Assembly: GCA_025361585.1 (NCBI GenBank)
Contig: JANYKK010000146.1
Span: 1-40,722 of the forward strand
DNA from: Methylobacter sp.
Lineage (GTDB): Bacteria; Pseudomonadota; Gammaproteobacteria; Methylococcales; Methylomonadaceae
DNA length: 40,722 bases
Direction: 5' to 3'
The position numbers and the translations under genes are program-made. The notes under the pieces were generated by a model that was not told where the DNA came from, did not search any database, and worked only from the letters and a program-made list of their open reading frames with translations. Below are positions 16,238 through 28,487 of this stretch, one piece after another; within the stretch, counting starts at the first letter, position 1, and each line of letters begins with the position of its first letter.

Positions 16238-17686
16238 ATGCTCCTTCCTGGCTTTATTGGCCCCGGCTACACTCTGCAGTCGATAGTGGCTGACTGTCAG
16301 CGGTGCGTCAATTGGTATCCAGAAATGAACGAACTGAGGACCCAGGCAGACGGTGAACAGACTTCACTGATCCAGGTGCCCGGACTTCGTAAACTTGCTA
16401 CGATTGGGCAAGGTCCTATTCGTGGCGTGCATATGACTTCAGCTGGGAAGCTGGCAGTCGTTTCTGGTTCTGGCGTCTATCGTGTGAATCCCGACTATTC
16501 GTATTCTCTAGCGGGCAATCTACTGACCTTGACTGGCCTCGTCAGTATGGCAGATAATGGTTCGCAGCTTGTCATTGTAGATGGGCCATACGGGTATACG
16601 ATTTCGTTAGTCGACGGAACAATGCTACAGATTGGTGATGATGGATTTGCTGGCGGGACAGCTGTCGTGTTCCAGGATGGCTATTTCATCACCAATGCTC
16701 CCGGCACTGGCCAGTTTAACATTTCAGGTCTTTACAATGGGCAGGCATGGAATGGCCTAGATATGGGGGTCGCAGAAGGTTCCCCAGACAATCTGGTGGT
16801 GGCTGTTTCAAATCAGCGGCAACTCTGGCTTCTTGGTGCGGAAACTACAGAAGTTTGGTGGGATAGCGGTGACGCGAATTTCCCATTTACTCGCATTGAT
16901 GGTGCGTATATTGAATTCGGGTGCGCGGCGGCTCACACAGCAAAGAAGCTCAATAATTCTGTGGTCTGGTTGGGTGGCGGATCCAAGGCCAACGGAATTG
17001 TGTGGATGTCGCAAGGATTCGTCCCCCGGCGTCTCAGTAACCATGCTGTTGAGTATGCTATTTCGCAGGCTGGCGATCTTTCTACTGCATCTGCGTGGAC
17101 TTACCAAGATTCAGGCCACCAGTTCTACTGTTTGAATCTTCCTAGTGCGAGCACCACCTGGGTCTATGATACAGCCACTAATCAGTGGTCTGAGCGTGTT
17201 TACAACGGACGAATCGGGCTAGAACGCCATCGTGCTTCTTGCTATGCGTGGGCATTCAACACTCATGTCGTTGGTGACTACCAGAATGGGAATATCTACG
17301 CCCTTGATCGACAGAAAGCTACTGATGACGGCACGCCACTTATTCGTTTCCGAAGTGCCCCGCATCTTTCCGATGCTATGAATCGCGTGTTCTACAGCGA
17401 ATTTCAGCTTAGTATGTCGGCTGGTATCGGACTTGATGGGCTGGGCGTCGATGGAAATGGTCTGGGTGTTATTCCCCAGATTGGGTTGAGTTGGTCAGAT
17501 GACTATGGTCGCTCATGGTCTCCTGAACGTATGATGCCGGTTGGCGGAATTGGCGCCTTCAAGACTCGTCTTCTTTGGTGGAAGCTAGGCCAGTCACGAA
17601 ATCGTGTATTTCGCGTTAAACTTTCGGATCCTATAGTCGCCACTTTGCTGGCTGCAGATATAAAGATTCTGGCAGGCAAGTCATGA
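16238..17686 (+). CDS. P22 gp10-like packaged-DNA stabilization protein
   Basis: GPGYTLQSIVADCQRCVNWYPE N-terminus; synteny. Confidence 0.8.
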   Translation: MLLPGFIGPGYTLQSIVADCQRCVNWYPEMNELRTQADGEQTSLIQVPGLRKLATIGQGPIRGVHMTSAGKLAVVSGSGVYRVNPDYSYSLAGNLLTLTGLVSMADNGSQLVIVDGPYGYTISLVDGTMLQIGDDGFAGGTAVVFQDGYFITNAPGTGQFNISGLYNGQAWNGLDMGVAEGSPDNLVVAVSNQRQLWLLGAETTEVWWDSGDANFPFTRIDGAYIEFGCAAAHTAKKLNNSVVWLGGGSKANGIVWMSQGFVPRRLSNHAVEYAISQAGDLSTASAWTYQDSGHQFYCLNLPSASTTWVYDTATNQWSERVYNGRIGLERHRASCYAWAFNTHVVGDYQNGNIYALDRQKATDDGTPLIRFRSAPHLSDAMNRVFYSEFQLSMSAGIGLDGLGVDGNGLGVIPQIGLSWSDDYGRSWSPERMMPVGGIGAFKTRLLWWKLGQSRNRVFRVKLSDPIVATLLAADIKILAGKS

Positions 17687-18167: not shown

Positions 18168-19907
18168 ATGGCCGCTCAACTTTTCCTTGTTCATATTGAT
18201 CTGAACAAGAACGAAGTTCAGAATGCCGTGTTCCAGAATCTTGGAGCCGCTCCCGGAACGCCTACCAAGGGTCAGTTCTACTTCGATACTGTGGGTAATA
18301 AGCTGAATGTCTACAATGGAGCAACCTGGGATGTAATGGGTTCCGGCAGTGGGGCGGTCTCCAGTGTTCAGATCACGCAACCAGCCCTCGGATTTACTGT
18401 CACTCCTACGGGTGCCCAGGTCGGCGTAGTTGCGTTCACCTTCACTGCGACTACGGAGTTCTCTAATTCATTGGGGATGACGACTGCTGGCATCAAGGTG
18501 CGAACTGGTGGCGGCGCAGGAGCTGGAACTTACGCGACGCGGCAGATGCTAGCTGGCGTCGGCATGGCCGCCTGCACGAATCCAGCAGGCGTGGCCGGTG
18601 ATATCACGATCAATGCAGCGCAGGATATCTCTACTGCTGGATCGCCCACCTTCGTTAATCCGAGTGCTTCTAGTGCCCCGACTGTCGCAGCGCACCTTAC
18701 GCGAAAAGACTATGTAGATGGTCTTTTTCAGGGTATTTCCTGGAAGAATCTGGTGCGTGCTGCGACCACCGTAGCAGGAACTCTAGTCTCTAGTTTCGCC
18801 AATGGCAGCGTGATCGACGGCACCACACTTGCTACGAATGACCGAATTCTAATCAAGAATCAGGCTGCACCTGCTGAAAATGGTATCTACACTGTGAACG
18901 CTGCGGGTGCTCCGACACGGGCACTCGACATGGATGTATGGGCAGAAGTTCCCAATGCCTGCATGTTCGCCGCCATCGGCACCGCGAACATGGATACTTC
19001 GTGGGTCTGCACGAGTGATCCTGGTGGAACTCTTGGCACGACGGCCATCAACTTCGTGCAGTTGACTTCAGCTACTGGTCTCGTCAGTCTTACAAGTGGC
19101 GTTACTGGAATTCTACCGATTGCAAATGGTGGACTTGGAGTATCTAGCTGGTATGCGGTGCCGGGAATGCGGCGTGCGTCTGCCGTGGTCTGCACGGCTA
19201 CCAATGTAACGATCAGTGCTCCAGGTGCAACGCTCGACGGTTTTGCGATGAGCGCAGGACAGCGAGTTCTGCTAGTTTCGCAGACCACTTCCAGCCAGAA
19301 TGGACTCTGGATCTGGAATGGCGCTGCTTCTGCGATGACCCGTCCTGCAGATTATCCCGCTGGTGGAGCAACGCAGGCATACGATGGATTAGAGGTCTTC
19401 GTCAACAATGGAACGCTGCATCGTGGTGAGACTTGGATTGTGCTTGGCCCAGGCGGATCTTCTTACACGATCGATAGTAGCTCTGTTCCATGGACCGCTA
19501 CGAGTGTCAACATTGGAACTAACCGCCCGTTCGGTATTCTTGGATCTGTGTACGGTGGCTCGGGAGCAGACCTTTCCGCTGCCGTGCAGGGCGCGATCCC
19601 TTACTTTTCTGCTACTGGTGTTGAAGGTGCGTCTGCTGCTGGAACTGCTGGGCAGATGTTGCAGAGCGGCGGAACCGGCGCTCCAGTATTCAAAGCGTAT
19701 AAGTTCGCACAGAACAACGCCAATGCCGCGACTACGACAGTCACACACAATCTCGGAACCACGGATATTCAAGTTCAGATGTGGGAACTTGGCGGTTCTA
19801 AGCGAGCTGTGATCACTGAATTCGATATCGTAGACGCTAACAACATCACGGTCAATCACCCCGCTTCTCCGGCGGCTGGCACTTACCGAATCGTAGTCCT
19901 CGGGTAG
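18168..19907 (+). CDS. Tail fiber-like protein
   Basis: Repeated ENGIYTVNAAGAPTRALDMD / QNGLWIWNGAASAMTRPADYP modules. Confidence 0.65.
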   Translation: MAAQLFLVHIDLNKNEVQNAVFQNLGAAPGTPTKGQFYFDTVGNKLNVYNGATWDVMGSGSGAVSSVQITQPALGFTVTPTGAQVGVVAFTFTATTEFSNSLGMTTAGIKVRTGGGAGAGTYATRQMLAGVGMAACTNPAGVAGDITINAAQDISTAGSPTFVNPSASSAPTVAAHLTRKDYVDGLFQGISWKNLVRAATTVAGTLVSSFANGSVIDGTTLATNDRILIKNQAAPAENGIYTVNAAGAPTRALDMDVWAEVPNACMFAAIGTANMDTSWVCTSDPGGTLGTTAINFVQLTSATGLVSLTSGVTGILPIANGGLGVSSWYAVPGMRRASAVVCTATNVTISAPGATLDGFAMSAGQRVLLVSQTTSSQNGLWIWNGAASAMTRPADYPAGGATQAYDGLEVFVNNGTLHRGETWIVLGPGGSSYTIDSSSVPWTATSVNIGTNRPFGILGSVYGGSGADLSAAVQGAIPYFSATGVEGASAAGTAGQMLQSGGTGAPVFKAYKFAQNNANAATTTVTHNLGTTDIQVQMWELGGSKRAVITEFDIVDANNITVNHPASPAAGTYRIVVLG

Positions 19908-19909
19908 CT

Positions 19910-20773
19910 ATGAGTAACCCTTTCGCATCGCTATCTAACATCTATAACTCAGCTACCGCGCCTTCCGTGGCTGGGCTAGGTGATATCTACTACGATACGG
20001 CACTCGGGGCACTTCGAGTTTGCACGAATGCGGTCGGCCCAGTCTTCACCACTCTCGGTGCTTCTGGTGGGAATGCTGGTGGTTCAATCACATATGCGGC
20101 GGGTGCTTCGGGTAACTGGGTCTGCCCCACTGGAATCACGCATGTAACGGTCGTAATATGCGGTGGTGGCGGAGCGGGTTGCAAGAATGCGGTCCATGGG
20201 TGCGGCGGTGGGGCGGCAGGAACTATCGTAGCTGAATTGGCTGTTACGCCTGGAAATTCCTACGCGTATTCAGTCGGAACTGGTGGCGTTGGCGGAGTTG
20301 GTAACGGCCTGAATGGAGTAGTGTCAACATTCGGCATACTCACAGCAAGACAAGGACTTGGCGGCACGAATGCGACTGGAGGTAACGGAGGTAATGGGTC
20401 GGTTACAGGATCACCAACGCTATTGATAGGCGGCGGTGCTGGCGGATCTGCTGCGCAGGGTAACGACGGAATGGTTATTCACTATGGAAGCGCCACGATT
20501 CTTGGGGGCGGCGGCGGATCCTTTGCGAATCAGCTGGGTGGATCCGCTGGTGTCTCGACGGTTACTGCGTCTATTGACGGCTACGGTGTCCAGGGTGGCA
20601 TATCTAATGGAGCTACCGCTGGAAGTGGCGGTGGCTCAGCTCTCGCAAATGGCGCGAATGGTGTCATCGCTGCTGTCCCCGCCACTCCAGGATTCGGTGG
20701 TGGCGGTGGCGGAACGGCGACTGGTGCGACTGCAGGAAATGGCGGTCCTGGGACAATCTCACTTTACTGGTAG
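19910..20773 (+). CDS. Glycine-rich tail fiber/adhesin protein
   Basis: Long Gly-rich C-terminus (VTVVICGGGGAG...GGGGGTATGATAGNGGPG). Confidence 0.65.
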   Translation: MSNPFASLSNIYNSATAPSVAGLGDIYYDTALGALRVCTNAVGPVFTTLGASGGNAGGSITYAAGASGNWVCPTGITHVTVVICGGGGAGCKNAVHGCGGGAAGTIVAELAVTPGNSYAYSVGTGGVGGVGNGLNGVVSTFGILTARQGLGGTNATGGNGGNGSVTGSPTLLIGGGAGGSAAQGNDGMVIHYGSATILGGGGGSFANQLGGSAGVSTVTASIDGYGVQGGISNGATAGSGGGSALANGANGVIAAVPATPGFGGGGGGTATGATAGNGGPGTISLYW

Positions 20774-20778
20774 GATCT

Positions 20779-21636
20779 ATGACCAAAGACTTCAATCGCA
20801 TGCTTGTTGATCTCGGGCTTACCGAGGATCAGGTCTCTTCTGCTGCTGCGATCATTGAGGATCGGGTGCCCATGCCACCTGATGACTACAAATTCATCTA
20901 CACCAATTCACCTATTCATGGAATGGGCGTTTTCGCGTGTGCCGCCTATGCACAGAATGAGGTTGTGGGCGCTTGTCGTCTTGGCCTGAGCCGCACTCCA
21001 CTTGGGTATATGGTGAATCATTCCGATACTCCGAATATTGAGTCTGTGCCGATGGAGGACGGAAGTGGCTATATGCGGACTCTCCGGCCCATTTCTGAAG
21101 GAGAGGAACTTCTGGTTGACTATAGGCACGCTGTATCTCAGGCTGCAAAAGCTGAGTATACGATTGTCGCTAGCCAAGGTGTCCAGGATACCTTTAATTC
21201 GCTTGTAAAGTTGGCGGAGTCCGGTGCATCTAGAGAAGAACTACGTGTTGCGATTGATGGTGTGGAGCAAGAACTTCTTAAGATGCCCCAGGCCGACCAT
21301 GGACTTGACCATATGTTCACTGACGGCCTGTACATCCGCTTGGCGCGAATATTTCCCATGACGTTATTTACCACCCCGATTTACCGGGAAGAGTGTATAC
21401 TTACATTGCTTCGTGGACGCATCATAGTCATCACGGAAGATGGAATCACTGCTGTCGCGGCGCCTGCCTGGACGCTTACGAAACCAGCACTCAAGCGTGT
21501 GATATTTGCGCTAGATGATGTTCTCGCCCACACCGTCCACCCTAACCCTGATAATGAGCATGATATTGAGAAGTTGGAAGCTCGTATCTATGCTGCATCC
21601 TACAAAGATCTAGCAATCGAAGGGAGCCTACTATGA
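20779..21636 (+). CDS. SET-domain protein with C-terminal cupin-like domain
   Basis: SPIHGMGVFA...GYMVNHSDTPNIES...RPISEGEELLVDYR (SET motifs); REECILTLLRGRIIVITEDGITAVAAPAW...HTVHPNPDNEHDIEKLEARIYA (cupin-like). Confidence 0.7.
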   Translation: MTKDFNRMLVDLGLTEDQVSSAAAIIEDRVPMPPDDYKFIYTNSPIHGMGVFACAAYAQNEVVGACRLGLSRTPLGYMVNHSDTPNIESVPMEDGSGYMRTLRPISEGEELLVDYRHAVSQAAKAEYTIVASQGVQDTFNSLVKLAESGASREELRVAIDGVEQELLKMPQADHGLDHMFTDGLYIRLARIFPMTLFTTPIYREECILTLLRGRIIVITEDGITAVAAPAWTLTKPALKRVIFALDDVLAHTVHPNPDNEHDIEKLEARIYAASYKDLAIEGSLL

Positions 21637-22280
21637 GTGGATGGGTAGCTGGATCGGCAGCTCTCTACACTGTGTCATCGTTGGTGAAGGCCAATGCTGC
21701 GAAACAGGCGGCGGCTGGACAGGCGGCGGCTGGCGAAGCTGCGACTAGGCGATCTGATGCCCAGGCTGCGCAGAGTCGTGCAGATCAGATGCCTTGGATG
21801 AAGGCAGGTCAGACAGCAATCGGGCAGTTGAGCGATCTCACTAAGGCAGGCGGTGATCTTAACCGTCACTTCACTCTTGATGACTTTGTTAAGGATCCTG
21901 GATATGACTTCCGTATGTCAGAAGGCTCTAAAGCTATTGAACGATCTGCGGCGGCGCGTGGTGGAGTTCTGGGCGGCGGTACGCTCAAATCTCTGACGCA
22001 GTATAACCAGAACTTCGCCAGCAATGAATATGGAAATTCCTATTCTCGCTGGAACAATGATAACACGAATACTTTCAATCGGCTTGCTTCTATCGCTGGT
22101 GTCGGACAGACTGCCGCCAATGCGAATCAGCAGGGCGGGCAGTTTGCTACCAACCAGATGCAGGGAAATACCTGGGGGTCAGCGAATGCGATTGCGGCCG
22201 GTACTGTCGCTGCTGGACAGCAGTATGGGAACGCGATCAATTCCATCGGTAAGTGGGCGGGTTCTTACAGTAACGGATAG
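21633..22280 (+). CDS. DNA transfer/internal virion protein
   Basis: Ala/Gln-rich; LDDFVKDPGYDFRMSEGSKAIERSAAARGGVLGGGTLKSLTQYNQNFASNEY. Confidence 0.7.
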   Translation: MSGWVAGSAALYTVSSLVKANAAKQAAAGQAAAGEAATRRSDAQAAQSRADQMPWMKAGQTAIGQLSDLTKAGGDLNRHFTLDDFVKDPGYDFRMSEGSKAIERSAAARGGVLGGGTLKSLTQYNQNFASNEYGNSYSRWNNDNTNTFNRLASIAGVGQTAANANQQGGQFATNQMQGNTWGSANAIAAGTVAAGQQYGNAINSIGKWAGSYSNG

Positions 22281-22300: not shown

Positions 22301-23851
22301 ATGTCGGATCTAGCTGATCTGAGTATGTATGGCCCGATGATTCGGGATACGGCGCATACACAGACTCCAGAAGAAGCACAGATGGAGCAGCTTCAGCTCC
22401 AGCATGTCGCGATGCAGAATAAGGTGCTGAGTTCTCAGGCTGATGATTCTACAGCATTGAAGACTGCTGCACGAACTGTTCAGGCCAAGGCCCTCGCTGA
22501 AGGGCGCACGCCAGATCCATCTGAGTATGAAGATGCGTTTCGTGCTATCGGCACTCCATCTGGATTTAAGGCCGCCCATGAATCTGTGCAGGCCAGGTCT
22601 CAGTCTGCTAAGGCCCAGCGAGACGCTGGTATTGCACAGGTCACACTGGATAAAGCGCATAATGATGAAGCAAGCCGCGTGACTGGGGGCATTCTTGCGC
22701 TCCCTCCTGAACAGCGTGCGGCTGCATGGCCGAATGCTCTGCAGGAATTCGCTAAGATCAGTCCTGAGAAGGCTCAGTCTGTTGGCGAGAAATATCCTCA
22801 GTATCCTGGTGATGACGTTGTTTCTCAGATGCATCAGTTCACTCTGTCAGAACAGAATCGGCTGGCGTTGTCTCAGCAGGCCCAGTTGAAGACTCATCAA
22901 GATGCAGATCTTGCAGAGCGAACTGCCTACCATAAGGAAGATCTGCGTATTAAGGAACTAGCGGCAAGGAAGCCGACGACTTTCCAACTTCAGCAGAGTG
23001 CCCTTAATCTTCCGGCTAACTTCGATCCTTCTGTAGCTTTGTCGAATGCTGCTGCTGAAGCCACAGCTCACCGAATTGGTAGCTGGGAAGCCAACCCTCC
23101 GCCTGAGAATATTCGCACCCCATTGTCTCAGATGGAAGTTGCGCGAGCTCAGTGGTTGGGGCAGAATCAGTATGGGCATCCTGAAGGCCTCCCAGGTGTG
23201 GCTGATATCGCTGATACTGTTAAGAATCGCCCTGCCTATGGGCCGACTGGACAGGTGGGGCAGCAGATCACCGCAGGCGGAACTGCTGTGAAGCACCTGA
23301 ATTCTCTTGAGAAGTTGGGAACCGCGCTTCAGAATGGCGACAATACCGCGATCAATGATATTGGCAATCGCTATGCCAAACTCACTGGCCAACCTGCCCC
23401 CACGAATTTCCAGTCTACTCTGAACTTGGTAGTTCCTGAAGTGCTGCGAGCCGCGAAGGGCGCAGGTGTTCTGAATGAAGCAGAAGAAAAGCGTTTCATG
23501 GACCAGATTAGTTCGTCTAGTAGCCCTGACCAGATTAAGGGCTTTGCGAACGAAATGATCCATCGTATTGGTGAACGTTTCAATTCTCTCCAGCCTGGAT
23601 ATGCTCGCTACAATCGAAATCATAATCTTTCTGAACGTTTGGATCCTGAAGCAATGAAGCTCTTTGACAAAGCGGGGATTAGCTTTGGGGCCAACGGTGC
23701 CGGGGGCGGTTCTGGAGGTCCAGGAGCCTCGCCTGCCTCACCTGGGGCACCTTCCTACAAGGGCGTTACTATGCCCTCGGTAAAGTTTAATTCACTCAGT
23801 GCTGCCGCCCAGAAAGCCTTTAAGGACGGCGGCGGAGAGGTCGCACAATGA
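22301..23851 (+). CDS. Putative ejection/internal virion protein
   Basis: 516-aa Gln/Ala-rich ORF in ejection-protein position. Confidence 0.6.
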   Translation: MSDLADLSMYGPMIRDTAHTQTPEEAQMEQLQLQHVAMQNKVLSSQADDSTALKTAARTVQAKALAEGRTPDPSEYEDAFRAIGTPSGFKAAHESVQARSQSAKAQRDAGIAQVTLDKAHNDEASRVTGGILALPPEQRAAAWPNALQEFAKISPEKAQSVGEKYPQYPGDDVVSQMHQFTLSEQNRLALSQQAQLKTHQDADLAERTAYHKEDLRIKELAARKPTTFQLQQSALNLPANFDPSVALSNAAAEATAHRIGSWEANPPPENIRTPLSQMEVARAQWLGQNQYGHPEGLPGVADIADTVKNRPAYGPTGQVGQQITAGGTAVKHLNSLEKLGTALQNGDNTAINDIGNRYAKLTGQPAPTNFQSTLNLVVPEVLRAAKGAGVLNEAEEKRFMDQISSSSSPDQIKGFANEMIHRIGERFNSLQPGYARYNRNHNLSERLDPEAMKLFDKAGISFGANGAGGGSGGPGASPASPGAPSYKGVTMPSVKFNSLSAAAQKAFKDGGGEVAQ

Positions 23852-26616
23852 GTCCTGTGACGGCAGATCCCCATGCCGAAATCGCAGCCGCCCTGACTCC
23901 CCAGGACGAAATAAAGAATGCTCTTGGGGATGGGGCGCATGACGAAATTGCTTCGATGCTTAAATCTAAGAAGACTTGGCAGGATGAGGTTACGCCTGTC
24001 AAACTTCCTAATGGAATTCAGACTGTAATGCGCCCTGACGGATACGTTTGGTTGGATGACAGCAAGGTTGCTCCTGGCGAAAAGAAACAGATTGATGGCC
24101 CTGGCTGGCATACTCCGAATCTCTGGGGTGGGTGGAAGCGTGGACCTTCGGCGCCTGACCAGTTTACTCCTAGCGATGAAAATGGACAGAAACGCCCACA
24201 GGATATGGGCGATGCTGAGATCGCTACGCGACTTCTTGGTCTGACACCTGAGCAGTATCTCCACATGTCTAACTCGGCGCTTTATCGCCCAGGAGATTTT
24301 AGGAGGATGTTGGCGCTGGACGGCCCCAACGCAAATCCCACCATTCAAGGAATTGAACAACCTGCTAAGAGTCTTTACAATGGGGCTCTCACAGGCGCGA
24401 ATGCTTTCCTTGGACTGGCGCAGAAACCAGGAACTTGGATGGGCGATAGTTCAGCTGAAGATCATTCGATTGCTACGGGTCGGCTGCTCAAACTAATCCA
24501 GAATATGAACCAGGGCCGCAATCCTCAGCAGGGTGGCTTCGATCCTCTCCATATGATCGGCCAGTATGGATCACTTAATCCTGGGACTACTACTGCTAAG
24601 ACAGTAGATCAAGCTCTCGCAAAGGAAGCACCTGAGGCTGTCGCTGGGTTGACTGGTAAGTTGATTCGCGGTGGCGAGGCTGCTCCCGGCGTTGTCCGTG
24701 ATACATTTCTCCGAACGCAGGGCGACGTCAAAGATCGTGCGACTGCTGCCGGAGCTGCCGGAGTGATGACGCCTGCCTTCAGTGCTACTGGTGATTACAT
24801 CGGTACAGGCGTTCAGAAGTTGATTAATCTAGGGAAAGGTATCTGGCACTCCGCCACACAAACTCCGCAGAGTCCACTTCCTGGAGTTGCTGGTGAGGTT
24901 CAGGCATTAGCTGACCAGCATGGTGTCAACGTCCAATCTCACAACTTGGTTAATGATCCTGCTTCTGAGGTTAAATCTCTGGGGGAGCTCACCTCAGCCG
25001 CCCCGATTGGTGGTCTTGGCAAGACTAACACCGCGCAACAGAAGGAAGCTCAGATTGCTGCGAATAACTTTGTCAGCCAACTCAAGGATAAGATGAAGGG
25101 CCTTGGGTATGAGAATATGAACGCACTGAAAGCTGCCGCCGCCGCGAAAGATCCCAGGGCAGTCGCTCTTCTTAAGATGGCTGACGAGGCTGGGAATAAT
25201 CTTCCAGAAGTCATACAGGCCAACGGTAATATCAACCTGTGGGCAAATCAGCGAAAGGTTGACCATGCCTTTGATCGTGCAAGGAGCCTAGATACCGGAG
25301 CCGTAGGGGCGCCAGAAGATGTAGCTCCGATGACGGCAAAGGTGGATGAACTTCTTGCTAGGCAGGAAGCTCTTGGTGAAGCGAACCAGAATAAGCCACT
25401 GGTTGAGTATCTTAAGAAAGTAAAGCGGGATCTCAGTGGCCGCGCTCCGGTTGAAGGCGCGGCGCCTATCCAGGGTGATGGCGTCCAGGCCAACGGCTCT
25501 GGAGATTCTGCGGCATCCGTAGAAGCTATCAATCGCGCGGCCCAAGAGCAGGCTCTTGGGCGAACGCGAGCGCTGGTCAATCTCCGCACCGGGCAGGTCA
25601 CCCGCATAGATTCCAATGTGGATTCAGTGGATATGCTGGCTCCTCCCAACACTGCAATCATGCAGAAAGGTGTGGGCAAAGATCCTAATGCCTGGGTCAT
25701 CTTAGATCATAACTCTAAGATGCCGCAACATGAAGTTGATGCCGCGATGCCTCGCGTTCAGGCTCAGTTGTCTCAGTGGGAGAAGACGCAACCTCCTCCC
25801 CCTACCCCAGAAGCCGCTAGTAAATTCCAGCCGACCTACTCTGCGCTTGCTGATTACCGTAAGGGTATCCAGTCTAAGCGGCAGAATATCGGAAAGCCAG
25901 GAAGTGAACTTACTGGTGATGATGCTACCGGCGCATTGAGAGAATTACAGGGCGCGACTGAAGATTCTATGCGGAGTGTCGGCGAACTCAGTCCTGGTGT
26001 CGCCAAGGCCGATCGGTATGCCCGTGATCTGCATAAAGAACTGGTTGTGCCGTTTAAGAATCGGGCTCTTGTGAAATCAATGACAACGGACACTCCAGAT
26101 GTCATGGCTGCAAAATTCAACAATATGTCTCCTGATCAAATTCAGGAGATTCTACCTGCGCTTGGCGAGAAAGGAAAGGCCGCGGTCCGAGCTTCCATGG
26201 TTGAACGTGGTGTTCAGCAATCAATGGATCGCACTCGTCCTGATGACTACCAATTCCAGCCACTGGTTTTCGCAGCTAAGATGAAAGACCCTAAGTTTGC
26301 TGAATCTCTCGGGCTCACAGTTCCCAAGGGTGGTGAAGATAAGTGGGCGCTCGATGGATTGACCAATCTTATGAGTCATTTGGATGACGCTGGTAAAGTC
26401 GCATCTACCAAAGGTGCGTTCACTTTGACACAGCGTATGCTGGGAGAACCTAGTGTCGCTATGAAGTGGCTCCTCACTACGAAACCGGGTAAGCAATTTC
26501 TTCTGCAAGCATCTGACTTGAAAGCTGGCTCTCCTGAACTGGCAGCGATAGTCGAGAAAATCAATCACGCAATACCGGCTCAGGCTGGTGCCCAGACTAC
26601 GGAGGCAGTGAAATGA
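23848..26616 (+). CDS. Putative large ejection/internal virion protein
   Basis: 922-aa ORF overlapping its neighbour by ATGA; synteny with ejection proteins. Confidence 0.6.
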   Translation: MSPVTADPHAEIAAALTPQDEIKNALGDGAHDEIASMLKSKKTWQDEVTPVKLPNGIQTVMRPDGYVWLDDSKVAPGEKKQIDGPGWHTPNLWGGWKRGPSAPDQFTPSDENGQKRPQDMGDAEIATRLLGLTPEQYLHMSNSALYRPGDFRRMLALDGPNANPTIQGIEQPAKSLYNGALTGANAFLGLAQKPGTWMGDSSAEDHSIATGRLLKLIQNMNQGRNPQQGGFDPLHMIGQYGSLNPGTTTAKTVDQALAKEAPEAVAGLTGKLIRGGEAAPGVVRDTFLRTQGDVKDRATAAGAAGVMTPAFSATGDYIGTGVQKLINLGKGIWHSATQTPQSPLPGVAGEVQALADQHGVNVQSHNLVNDPASEVKSLGELTSAAPIGGLGKTNTAQQKEAQIAANNFVSQLKDKMKGLGYENMNALKAAAAAKDPRAVALLKMADEAGNNLPEVIQANGNINLWANQRKVDHAFDRARSLDTGAVGAPEDVAPMTAKVDELLARQEALGEANQNKPLVEYLKKVKRDLSGRAPVEGAAPIQGDGVQANGSGDSAASVEAINRAAQEQALGRTRALVNLRTGQVTRIDSNVDSVDMLAPPNTAIMQKGVGKDPNAWVILDHNSKMPQHEVDAAMPRVQAQLSQWEKTQPPPPTPEAASKFQPTYSALADYRKGIQSKRQNIGKPGSELTGDDATGALRELQGATEDSMRSVGELSPGVAKADRYARDLHKELVVPFKNRALVKSMTTDTPDVMAAKFNNMSPDQIQEILPALGEKGKAAVRASMVERGVQQSMDRTRPDDYQFQPLVFAAKMKDPKFAESLGLTVPKGGEDKWALDGLTNLMSHLDDAGKVASTKGAFTLTQRMLGEPSVAMKWLLTTKPGKQFLLQASDLKAGSPELAAIVEKINHAIPAQAGAQTTEAVK

Positions 26617-28487
26617 CCGCCCAACTTCCGCCCCAAATGGTATTTCAGCCACTAAAACTCAACGCCAGTGGCGTGATGGTGCCAATTCCCGGAGGCAAGC
26701 TCTACACTTATCAACAGGGAACGCTAGTTCCCCAGGCAGTCTACACAGATGCCACGCTGACAACGCCTTGCACGAATCCACTAGTTCTGGACGCCAACGG
26801 TATCAGCGTCTTCTGGATGGCACCTGGGGGATACCAGTTCTGGCTCAAGGACTCCAGTGATGTCACGATCTACCCCTATCCCATTGATAGGGTGACCAAT
26901 ACCATTGATGGAATTCAGGGCGTGCAGGGTCTGCAAGGAACTCCTGGTTCTGTATGGCGCGATGGCTCAGGTACTCCATCTAGTTTGATGGGCATCGATG
27001 GTGACTACTACCTAGACAATGTTTCTGGCGATGTCTGGTGTCGCGTGACTGGTGTCTACGCTCTTCGTGGAAACATTAAGGGTCCTCCGGCTGCCACCGT
27101 TAATGCGATTGAAAACAGTTCTTTCTATGGCGGCGCAGCTCCCTGGAGTCTGTTCGCAGCGCTCTCTAATGGAATAACTCCGGTTCTACTGGGCGGGCGG
27201 TTCCCCAACTCCAAAGCACCGAGTGTCTTTGCTCAGTCGCTCACTACAAATGTTCTTGCCATTGGCGAAGTCACCCAGGGTTTCGCTATCTGCAATCCAA
27301 TGGGAACTATGCTGATCACCTTCTACATGACAGCGTGGCGAGAGACAGCTACTCCTCCCAATACGGCGTATTCTGCGCAGGTGAAGGCATACATTCACAA
27401 TGCTCAGAATGACACTGAAACCTTAGTGGGGACCTTCCCCATTCTGCAGGGCGCAATCAATACGACCTACGCTACGGCGACTTGGAATCAGCAGTCTATC
27501 GATATCACGGCTTACCTGCCTTCTATCGGCACTTACGGTGTCCGTTTCGAGGTTCAGTCTACCTGCGATAATACTGGTGGAGTTGCTGGTGGAAAGGGCA
27601 TCTACTGCGCCATTGATGATGTAGTCCTGAATGTCACGGGGACTGGTGTCGCAGGCCCAACAGGCCCCGCTGGACCGCAAGGTCCCGTCGGGCCTGCTGG
27701 ATCTGGCTACCAGCAGAAAGTAATCTTCATTTCTAACGGCTCGTGGACTCCCCCAGCCAACGTCAACTTTGCTGATGTCTTGTGCGTCGGTGGCGGAGGC
27801 GGAGGCGGAGGCGGAGCTCAGGCTGCGAATTCTGCTGGCGGAGGCGGGGGCGGAGCTGCTGCTACGATTCTTCGGCGTGTCCCCGTAACCCCGGGCACGC
27901 CCATCACTATCGTCATCGGGACTGCGGGTTCTGGTGGAGCGACTAATGTCGCGGGAACTGCGGGAACCGCGACTACCTTCGGTGCGCTTATTACTGCGAA
28001 TGGTGGGGGTTCGGGTGGCGCAGGGGCGCTCTCTGTTCCTGGCCTTGCAGGAAGCGCAGCATTCGCCTCAGTTACTGGAGTCACTCCCGGTGGTCGGGCC
28101 TATACCTATTCTAACAGCACTGGTACCGGTTCTGCAGTCAATATGATGTTTGGAAATGCTGTCTTGATGGGCGGATCTAATGGTGGCGTTGGTGGGACTG
28201 GCAGTTCTTCTAGCCCCACAGCAGGTGGAAACGGTTATCCTTCTGAGACAGCTAATGGCGGAACTGGCGGATCCGCTGGTTCAGTCTACGGCGGTGGCGG
28301 TGGCGGTGGAGCTTGCCCCTACGGAAATGGCGGTCAGGGTCAGAATGGCGGTTCTGGCGGTGGTGGGCAGACGCCCAGTGCCGGGAATTATGGATCTGCT
28401 GGTGGCGGCGGCGGCGGAGTTTCTGCTGGTGGATCTGCTGGTGGCGGCGGTGCCCCTGGATATGCCGTCGTCTGGTATCAGGGTTAG
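26613..28487 (+). CDS. Tail fiber with collagen-like GPxG segment and Gly-rich adhesin-like C-terminus
   Basis: N-terminus GGKLYTYQQGTLVPQAVYTDATLTTPCTNPLVLDANG; GPTGPAGPQGPVGPAGS; poly-Gly C-terminus. Confidence 0.75.
   Translation: MTAQLPPQMVFQPLKLNASGVMVPIPGGKLYTYQQGTLVPQAVYTDATLTTPCTNPLVLDANGISVFWMAPGGYQFWLKDSSDVTIYPYPIDRVTNTIDGIQGVQGLQGTPGSVWRDGSGTPSSLMGIDGDYYLDNVSGDVWCRVTGVYALRGNIKGPPAATVNAIENSSFYGGAAPWSLFAALSNGITPVLLGGRFPNSKAPSVFAQSLTTNVLAIGEVTQGFAICNPMGTMLITFYMTAWRETATPPNTAYSAQVKAYIHNAQNDTETLVGTFPILQGAINTTYATATWNQQSIDITAYLPSIGTYGVRFEVQSTCDNTGGVAGGKGIYCAIDDVVLNVTGTGVAGPTGPAGPQGPVGPAGSGYQQKVIFISNGSWTPPANVNFADVLCVGGGGGGGGGAQAANSAGGGGGGAAATILRRVPVTPGTPITIVIGTAGSGGATNVAGTAGTATTFGALITANGGGSGGAGALSVPGLAGSAAFASVTGVTPGGRAYTYSNSTGTGSAVNMMFGNAVLMGGSNGGVGGTGSSSSPTAGGNGYPSETANGGTGGSAGSVYGGGGGGGACPYGNGGQGQNGGSGGGGQTPSAGNYGSAGGGGGGVSAGGSAGGGGAPGYAVVWYQG

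What the first reader, a model, noticed from the sequence alone, without database searches (positions are those of the whole stretch)
20779..21636. SET-domain plus cupin-like fusion inside the late tail/ejection module
The N-terminal half carries SET-like motifs (HGMGVFA, NHSDTPN, GEELLVDY). The C-terminal half looks like a cupin (ECILTLLRGRIIVITEDGITAVAAPAW...VHPNPDNE). A lysine-methyltransferase-type domain co-transcribed with fibers and ejection proteins suggests virion protein methylation or an injected effector on host proteins; this fusion is unfamiliar to me.
Basis: partly seen in the sequence, partly recalled or inferred. Interest (0 to 1): 0.72.

Follow-up and report, generated by a model that had tools for sequence, protein, structure and literature searches.

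The report
Phage lysine-methyltransferase fused to cupin
A short-tailed phage carries, just in front of its DNA-ejection genes, one protein that joins an intact SET-type (protein lysine methyltransferase) domain to a cupin-fold phage module; the pair recurs in hundreds of uncharacterised phages in both domain orders, which suggests that phages methylate a protein, perhaps one of their own, while building virions.

Summary
ORF 20779-21636 (285 aa) has an N-terminal SET domain (PF00856, E 2e-7, above the gathering score) and a C-terminal cupin-fold domain. AlphaFold gives pLDDT 91; the SET half matches vSET, EZH2 and MLL, the cupin half small cupins.

The fusion is not unique. Cupin-SET proteins are widespread in environmental phages. 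The window, L127 and L139 carry the reverse order, SET-cupin. The cupin half is the stand-alone 'short tail fiber protein' (PHROG_12032/24280) of other phages. In a Paraburkholderia prophage the two domains are separate genes overlapping by 4 nt.

In 101 of 124 cases the gene directly precedes a P22 gp7-like ejection gene; in the window the two share ATGA. GNAT acetyltransferase genes occupy the same slots in other phages and sometimes directly precede the cupin.

Best reading: an active minimal methyltransferase, targeted by its cupin, working late in virion assembly. The substrate is unknown: 95 neighbouring gp7 proteins share no conserved lysine. Injected-effector and adhesin readings remain open. 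I found no published description of the family; nothing here was tested at the bench.

The parts
20779..21636 (+). SET-cupin fusion protein, 285 aa
20779..21165 (+). SET domain with its N-terminal helices (aa 1-129). Motif residues S44, G48xG50, R72-T73, G76, N80-H81-S82, P85-N86, E110, D114-Y115
   Evidence: Pfam; conservation; fold
21166..21636 (+). Helical linker and cupin-fold domain (aa 130-285), same family as the stand-alone phage 'short tail fiber protein/adhesin' (PHROG_12032, PHROG_24280). Residues conserved elsewhere (E188, G199, H206, N208, W250) are replaced here
   Evidence: (E 2e-17, 1e-13)
21633..21636 (+). ATGA overlap: stop codon of the SET-cupin gene and start codon of the gp7-like gene, suggesting translational coupling
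21633..22280 (+). gp7-like DNA-ejection protein (P22 gp7 / T7 gp14 position)
   Evidence: PHROG_598 E 9e-37
22301..23851 (+). probable gp20-like ejection protein (by position and size; no family match)
23848..26616 (+). probable gp16-like ejection protein (by position and size; no family match)
16238..17686 (+). P22 gp10-like head-closure protein Hc3
   Evidence: PHROG_578 E 3e-108
18168..19907 (+). virion decoration / fibre-like protein
   Evidence: PHROG_2647 E 3e-47 and tail-fiber families
19910..20773 (+). glycine-rich fibre-like protein directly upstream
   Evidence: PF21722 E 3e-8

Best explanation
The gene encodes a minimal, probably active protein lysine methyltransferase (SET) joined to a cupin-fold targeting module that other phages encode on its own. 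It is made late, translationally coupled to the gp7-like ejection protein. I propose that the cupin binds a protein of the tail, portal or ejection assembly and places the SET domain on it, so that one or more lysines are methylated during virion morphogenesis. SHOWN: both folds (predicted), intact catalytic motif, conserved slot before the ejection operon, recurrent cupin/SET pairing as separate genes and as fusions in both orders, and GNAT acetyltransferases in the same slots. INFERRED: catalysis, a virion substrate, the targeting role of the cupin, and the effect on ejection.
For: SET fold and motif; 124/124 invariance of catalytic-motif residues in sequences often under 45% identical, hard to explain without catalysis. 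Functional link of the two domains: cupin-SET fusions in 121 of 124 unique full-length proteins, SET-cupin in 3, two adjacent genes overlapping by 4 nt in Paraburkholderia ferrariae (L311). The cupin tree has a well-supported split (SH-aLRT 96) setting all 3 SET-cupins and 3 cupin-SETs with the 13 stand-alone cupins, apart from the main cupin-SET clade, so the pair probably joined more than once. Slot: gp7-like gene directly downstream in 101/124, also for L127; stand-alone cupins sit before the gp7 or T7-gp14-type gene in Vibrio, Thalassomonas, Sphaerotilus and Variovorax phages. GNATs of PHROG_1249 occupy the same slots and directly precede the cupin in BPP-1, Acinetobacter MD-2021a and L039. 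Published parallel: cobavirus GNAT pc40 beside the internal virion proteins was equated with T7 gp13, a suggested morphogenesis factor (PMC6775973). P22 gp7 and T7 gp14 are listed as equivalent ejection proteins (PMC8954989).
Against: No substrate identified; 95 gp7 proteins next to SET genes have no column with over 40% lysine and low lysine content overall (2.1%). Some loci lie outside the slot: before a J-type tail fibre gene in siphophages (L106, L151), before the portal (L039), and in L311 beside a replicative helicase, with an integrase-like ORF 2.5 kb downstream, where a virion role is not evident. GNAT adjacency was seen in only about four loci, and several stand-alone cupin phages have none. 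No proteomics and no enzymology. Interdomain packing in the window model is uncertain (pTM 0.63).
Confidence: 0.42

Rival explanations
1. Host-directed methyltransferase: the protein, made late or carried in the virion and injected, methylates host proteins (for example ribosomal, envelope or defence proteins). The cupin recognises the host target.
For: SET domains normally act on defined cellular proteins. In the P. ferrariae prophage the cupin and SET genes lie beside replication genes, not in the ejection operon. Cyanophages and a Pelagibacter phage carry SET-only proteins, in P-SSM7 among nucleotide-metabolism genes. No conserved lysine in the neighbouring gp7.
Against: Conserved position before ejection genes in 101/124 and its parallel with GNAT and cupin genes; no evidence of packaging or secretion.
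Confidence: 0.22
2. Virion adhesin: the cupin domain is a receptor-binding or short tail-fibre part, as PHROG names suggest, and the SET fold serves as a structural or binding part of it.
For: PHROG_12032/24280 labels 'short tail fiber protein' and 'tail fiber adhesin'; the Shewanella phage X14 cupin is annotated 'Unknown function structural gene'; neighbours are fibre-like.
Against: I found no test behind these labels. The domain is a single small cupin in a protein of about 150 aa, without fibre repeats, in a slot also used by enzymes. Full conservation of SET catalytic residues is not expected for a structural part.
Confidence: 0.13
3. Assembly chaperone: the cupin and the SET fold are used as non-catalytic binding modules for the ejection proteins.
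For: Slot and translational coupling with gp7. In the window's cupin several otherwise conserved positions are replaced, which argues for binding rather than metal chemistry there.
Against: SET catalytic and SAM-site residues are invariant in 124/124; pseudo-enzymes usually lose them.
Confidence: 0.15
4. Two-enzyme protein: the cupin is itself a metal enzyme acting with the SET domain on the same small molecule or residue.
For: Conserved G-H, H and N residues in the cupin of the main cupin-SET clade could hold a metal.
Against: In the window E188 is Leu, G199 Thr, H206 Cys, N208 Leu and W250 Ala, so a metal site is unlikely here; no Pfam cupin model passes its cut-off.
Confidence: 0.06

Closest known systems
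vSET (A612L) of chlorella virus PBCV-1, H3K27 methyltransferase (PDB 3kma, 1n3j)
   Same: Minimal SET domain; NHSxxPN and GEExxxxY motifs; best Foldseek hit
   Different: vSET is a lone 119-aa protein of a eukaryotic virus acting on host histone (from its PDB name); here a cupin is fused and the carrier is a bacteriophage
PHROG_34170 / unannotated cupin-SET proteins (Rhodoferax phage P26218 gp30, Pseudoalteromonas phage PH1, ct1fd225 UOF81456)
   Same: Same two domains, same slot before the gp7-like gene, same invariant residues
   Different: Domain order is cupin-SET; the window is SET-cupin with a stand-alone-type cupin
Stand-alone phage cupins PHROG_12032/24280 (BPP-1 Bbp23, VPMS1 MS_018, BA3_0007)
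   Same: Homologous to the C-terminal domain and, for the P22- and T7-like phages, the same gene position
   Different: No SET domain; in BPP-1 and MD-2021a a GNAT gene sits next to it instead
GNAT proteins PHROG_1249 and the T7 gp13 / P22 gp14 position
   Same: Acetyltransferase genes in the same two genomic slots (PMC6775973)
   Different: Acyl-CoA chemistry, unrelated fold; homology of T7 gp13 or P22 gp14 to these GNATs was not detected

Membership tests
SET-domain protein lysine methyltransferases (PF00856) | Sequence match above the curated cut-off | tested here: met
   31.8 bits against 22.4
SET-domain protein lysine methyltransferases (PF00856) | SET fold | tested here: met
   AF2 model pLDDT 91; 3kma E 1.4e-6; EZH2/MLL Z about 11
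SET-domain protein lysine methyltransferases (PF00856) | GxG and NHS..PN motifs and catalytic Tyr | tested here: met
   G48, G50, N80, H81, P85, Y115 each 124/124
SET-domain protein lysine methyltransferases (PF00856) | SAM-dependent lysine methylation | not testable with these tools
   needs a purified protein
Cupin superfamily | Small double-stranded beta-helix fold | tested here: met
   Foldseek to 2i45, tm1459, 3d82, E about 1e-5, probability 1.00
Cupin superfamily | Match to a Pfam cupin model above cut-off | tested here: not met
   none for the window; best relative 12.3 bits against 27.2
Metal-dependent cupin enzymes | Conserved His/Glu metal ligands | tested here: not met
   window has T199, C206 and L208 where relatives have G, H and N; filed as cupin fold only
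PHROG_12032/24280 'short tail fiber protein' | Profile match | tested here: met
   E 2e-17 and 1e-13
PHROG_12032/24280 'short tail fiber protein' | Being a tail fibre or adhesin in the virion | not testable with these tools
   no proteomics found for any member in the papers read
P22-like podophage morphogenesis module | terL, portal, scaffold, coat, Ad3, Hc3, gp7 in order | tested here: met
Homologue of T7 gp13 / P22 gp14 | Same gene slot upstream of the gp14/gp7 ejection gene | tested here: met
   against the window
Homologue of T7 gp13 / P22 gp14 | Sequence homology | tested here: not met
   P22 gp14 is DUF2824 and T7 gp13 PF11090; the window protein matches neither. Only the position is shared

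The most novel reading that the evidence does not exclude
Many unrelated short-tailed phages install a lysine modification (methyl by SET, acyl by GNAT) on a protein of their own ejection or portal machinery, using a shared cupin adaptor, as a standard step of virion maturation; the window phage has a rearranged one-protein version of this.
Probability: 0.3. Interest if true: 0.85.

Novelty: new variant of a known kind. Interest (0 to 1): 0.6.

Why it matters
SET methyltransferases are studied mainly as chromatin enzymes; a large, conserved phage family with an intact active site next to the genome-ejection genes has no known substrate, and I found no paper on it in the library searched. If the substrate is a virion protein, this would be a widespread, overlooked post-translational step in phage assembly, directly testable by methyl-lysine proteomics of cultured phages (Rhodoferax P26218, Pseudoalteromonas PH1). 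It also gives a working hypothesis for a small gene slot (T7 gp13 / P22 gp14 position) whose role in making infectious virions is poorly explained.

Tried and rejected
(1) Chance motif match: rejected. (2) Homology of T7 gp13 or P22 gp14 to GNATs: I suspected it from memory; hhalign gave no support, a PDB profile search found nothing and P22 gp14 alone gave only a weak glyoxalase hit. Alignments were shallow, so this is inconclusive; only the slot is claimed. (3) gp7 as the conserved substrate: no conserved lysine in 95 sequences. (4) Three independent SET-cupin origins: suggested by the SET tree but a single clade is not rejected (AU p=0.215; cupin tree p=0.588); I claim only that the cupin of these proteins belongs with the stand-alone set. 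(5) First large structure alignment mixed SET and cupin fragments (A6) and was discarded for A8. (6) Alignments A4 and A5 were too diverse for a collection scan. (7) Paper searches for phage SET proteins gave nothing relevant; one 'SET domain' hit was an Ig-like I-set domain. (8) BPP-1 paper: in the passages read only the two head proteins were identified by mass spectrometry, nothing on Bbp23.

Full report
WHAT IS THERE. ORF 20779-21636 (+) encodes 285 aa. Pfam finds SET at E=2.1e-7, above its gathering score. PHROGs places aa 148-278 in PHROG_12032 (E=2e-17) and PHROG_24280 (1e-13), 'short tail fiber protein' and 'tail fiber adhesin', and aa 3-123 in the unnamed PHROG_34170 (E=3e-37). AlphaFold on an alignment of 40 window and viral-contig sequences gave pLDDT 90.9, pTM 0.63. 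Foldseek matches the N half to vSET of PBCV-1 and the C half to small cupins; VIA-align gives Z about 10-11 to EZH2, MLL and other SET domains. A cupin-SET relative (L001) folds equally well, pLDDT 90.9, pTM 0.86.

SURROUNDINGS. The window is a whole contig of a binned genome (G000:C271) with an exact 141-base terminal overlap, so probably a complete circularly assembled phage. It is P22-like: terminase, portal, scaffold, coat, gp4-like Ad3, gp10-like Hc3, fibre-like proteins, SET-cupin, then the gp7-like DNA-ejection gene (PHROG_598, E=9e-37). The SET-cupin stop and gp7 start overlap as ATGA. The other, minus-strand, arms have primase, helicase, DNA polymerase and thymidylate synthase.

THE FAMILY. 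A first protein search finds 26 phage records. An alignment search of IMG/VR finds 496 relatives; the 80 kept were all matched over nearly the whole protein and carry the NHS/NHA motif. Of 124 unique full-length proteins 121 are cupin-SET and 3 SET-cupin: the window, L127 and L139. Across all 124, S44, G48, G50, R72, T73, G76, N80, H81, P85, E110 and Y115 (window numbering) are invariant. The window's cupin is divergent: E188, G199, H206, N208 and W250, conserved in 115 to 123 of 124 sequences, are replaced by L, T, C, L and A.

ORIGIN OF THE REVERSED ORDER. In the cupin tree a branch with SH-aLRT 96 separates 51 cupin-SET cupins from a set holding all 13 stand-alone cupins, all 3 SET-cupins and the cupin-SETs of PH1, L102 and L112. 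In the SET tree L127 (SET-cupin) groups with L102 and L112 (cupin-SET) at 97, while the window and L139 fall elsewhere. A single SET-cupin clade is not rejected in either tree (AU p 0.215 and 0.588), and the window branch is long, so the number of reversals is open. The simplest reading is that SET domains were joined more than once to cupins of the stand-alone type. In Paraburkholderia ferrariae (L311) cupin and SET are separate genes overlapping by 4 nt. Separate genes, one fusion order and the other order together form a classic sign of joint function.

THE SLOT. A gp7-like gene lies directly downstream in 83 of 124 with the first profile and 101 of 124 after iteration, the rest including contig ends. 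L127 has it too (PHROG_598 E=2e-16). Stand-alone cupins take the same position in P22-like phages and precede the T7 gp14-type gene in Sphaerotilus R1 and Variovorax VAC_51. P22 gp7 and T7 gp14 are listed as equivalent ejection proteins (PMC8954989). A second slot lies before the portal: cupin in Alteromonas R8W and BPP-1 (bbp21, annotated head-tail adaptor). GNAT acetyltransferases of PHROG_1249 or its close relatives occupy the first slot in TPWB-05 and Piluca and the second in ACG-C91 and Njord. They directly precede the cupin in BPP-1 and MD-2021a and the cupin-SET in L039. In zth2-2 a GNAT-like ORF lies about 280 bases downstream of the cupin-SET. A published genome study noted a GNAT beside internal virion proteins and equated it with T7 gp13 (PMC6775973).

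EXCEPTIONS. In siphophage-type contigs L106 and L151 the cupin-SET gene precedes a J-type tail fibre gene; in L039 it precedes the portal region. In L311 the pair follows a replicative helicase, and in L309 a SET-only gene follows a primase-like gene. Short SET-only proteins occur in cyanophages and a Pelagibacter phage.

HOW IT MIGHT WORK. Intact catalytic residues in every relative argue for an enzyme. Recurrent pairing argues that the cupin delivers it to its target or regulates it. The slot argues for late assembly, with ejection, portal or tail proteins as candidate substrates. Against the nearest candidate, 95 gp7 proteins next to SET genes share no conserved lysine. The substrate is therefore open and host targets remain possible; I put 0.42 on the assembly reading.

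COMPARISON AND NOVELTY. The SET half works like vSET and is a SET family member by every sequence and fold test available. The C half is a member of PHROG_12032/24280 and has a cupin fold, but fails the metal-ligand test and Pfam's cupin models. UniProt already holds auto-named 'SET domain containing protein' phage entries, the best BFVD match aligning over 268 columns. I found no paper describing the family, within an open-access library only. Hence: a new variant of a known kind, with an unusual and testable biological question.

Noticed in passing
window 1-40722: Exact 141-base overlap between the two contig ends: the contig is probably a complete phage genome binned into a bacterial draft genome; 141 is also a common assembler k-mer.
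   Followed up: partly
L311:5671-7118 (Paraburkholderia ferrariae NBRC 106233): Cupin and SET encoded as two genes overlapping by 4 nt, downstream of a replicative helicase, with an integrase-like ORF 2.5 kb further on.
   Followed up: partly
L039:2398-3782; L174:6480-7399; L181:2394-3342: A GNAT acetyltransferase gene directly upstream of, and overlapping, the cupin or cupin-SET gene in three unrelated phages.
   Followed up: yes
L106, L151: Cupin-SET genes in siphophage-type contigs, directly before a lambda J-like central tail fibre gene.
   Followed up: no
L006:4356-5237 (MW202557): The cupin-SET gene is missing from the deposited annotation; a reverse-strand ORF 'contryphan-vn-tryptophan' overlaps or abuts it.
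   Followed up: no
L007 (PH1), L003 (ct1fd225), L009 (Amaethon), L010 (VPMS1): Probable gp16-like ejection proteins are annotated as TerL or portal protein, likely misannotation.
   Followed up: no
window 19910-20773 and 26613-28487: Two separate fibre-like genes both carry the same glycine-rich C-terminal domain family (PF21722).
   Followed up: no
L012, L013, L014: Roughly 100-aa SET-only proteins in a marine virus, cyanophage P-SSM7 and Pelagibacter phage Kolga.
   Followed up: no
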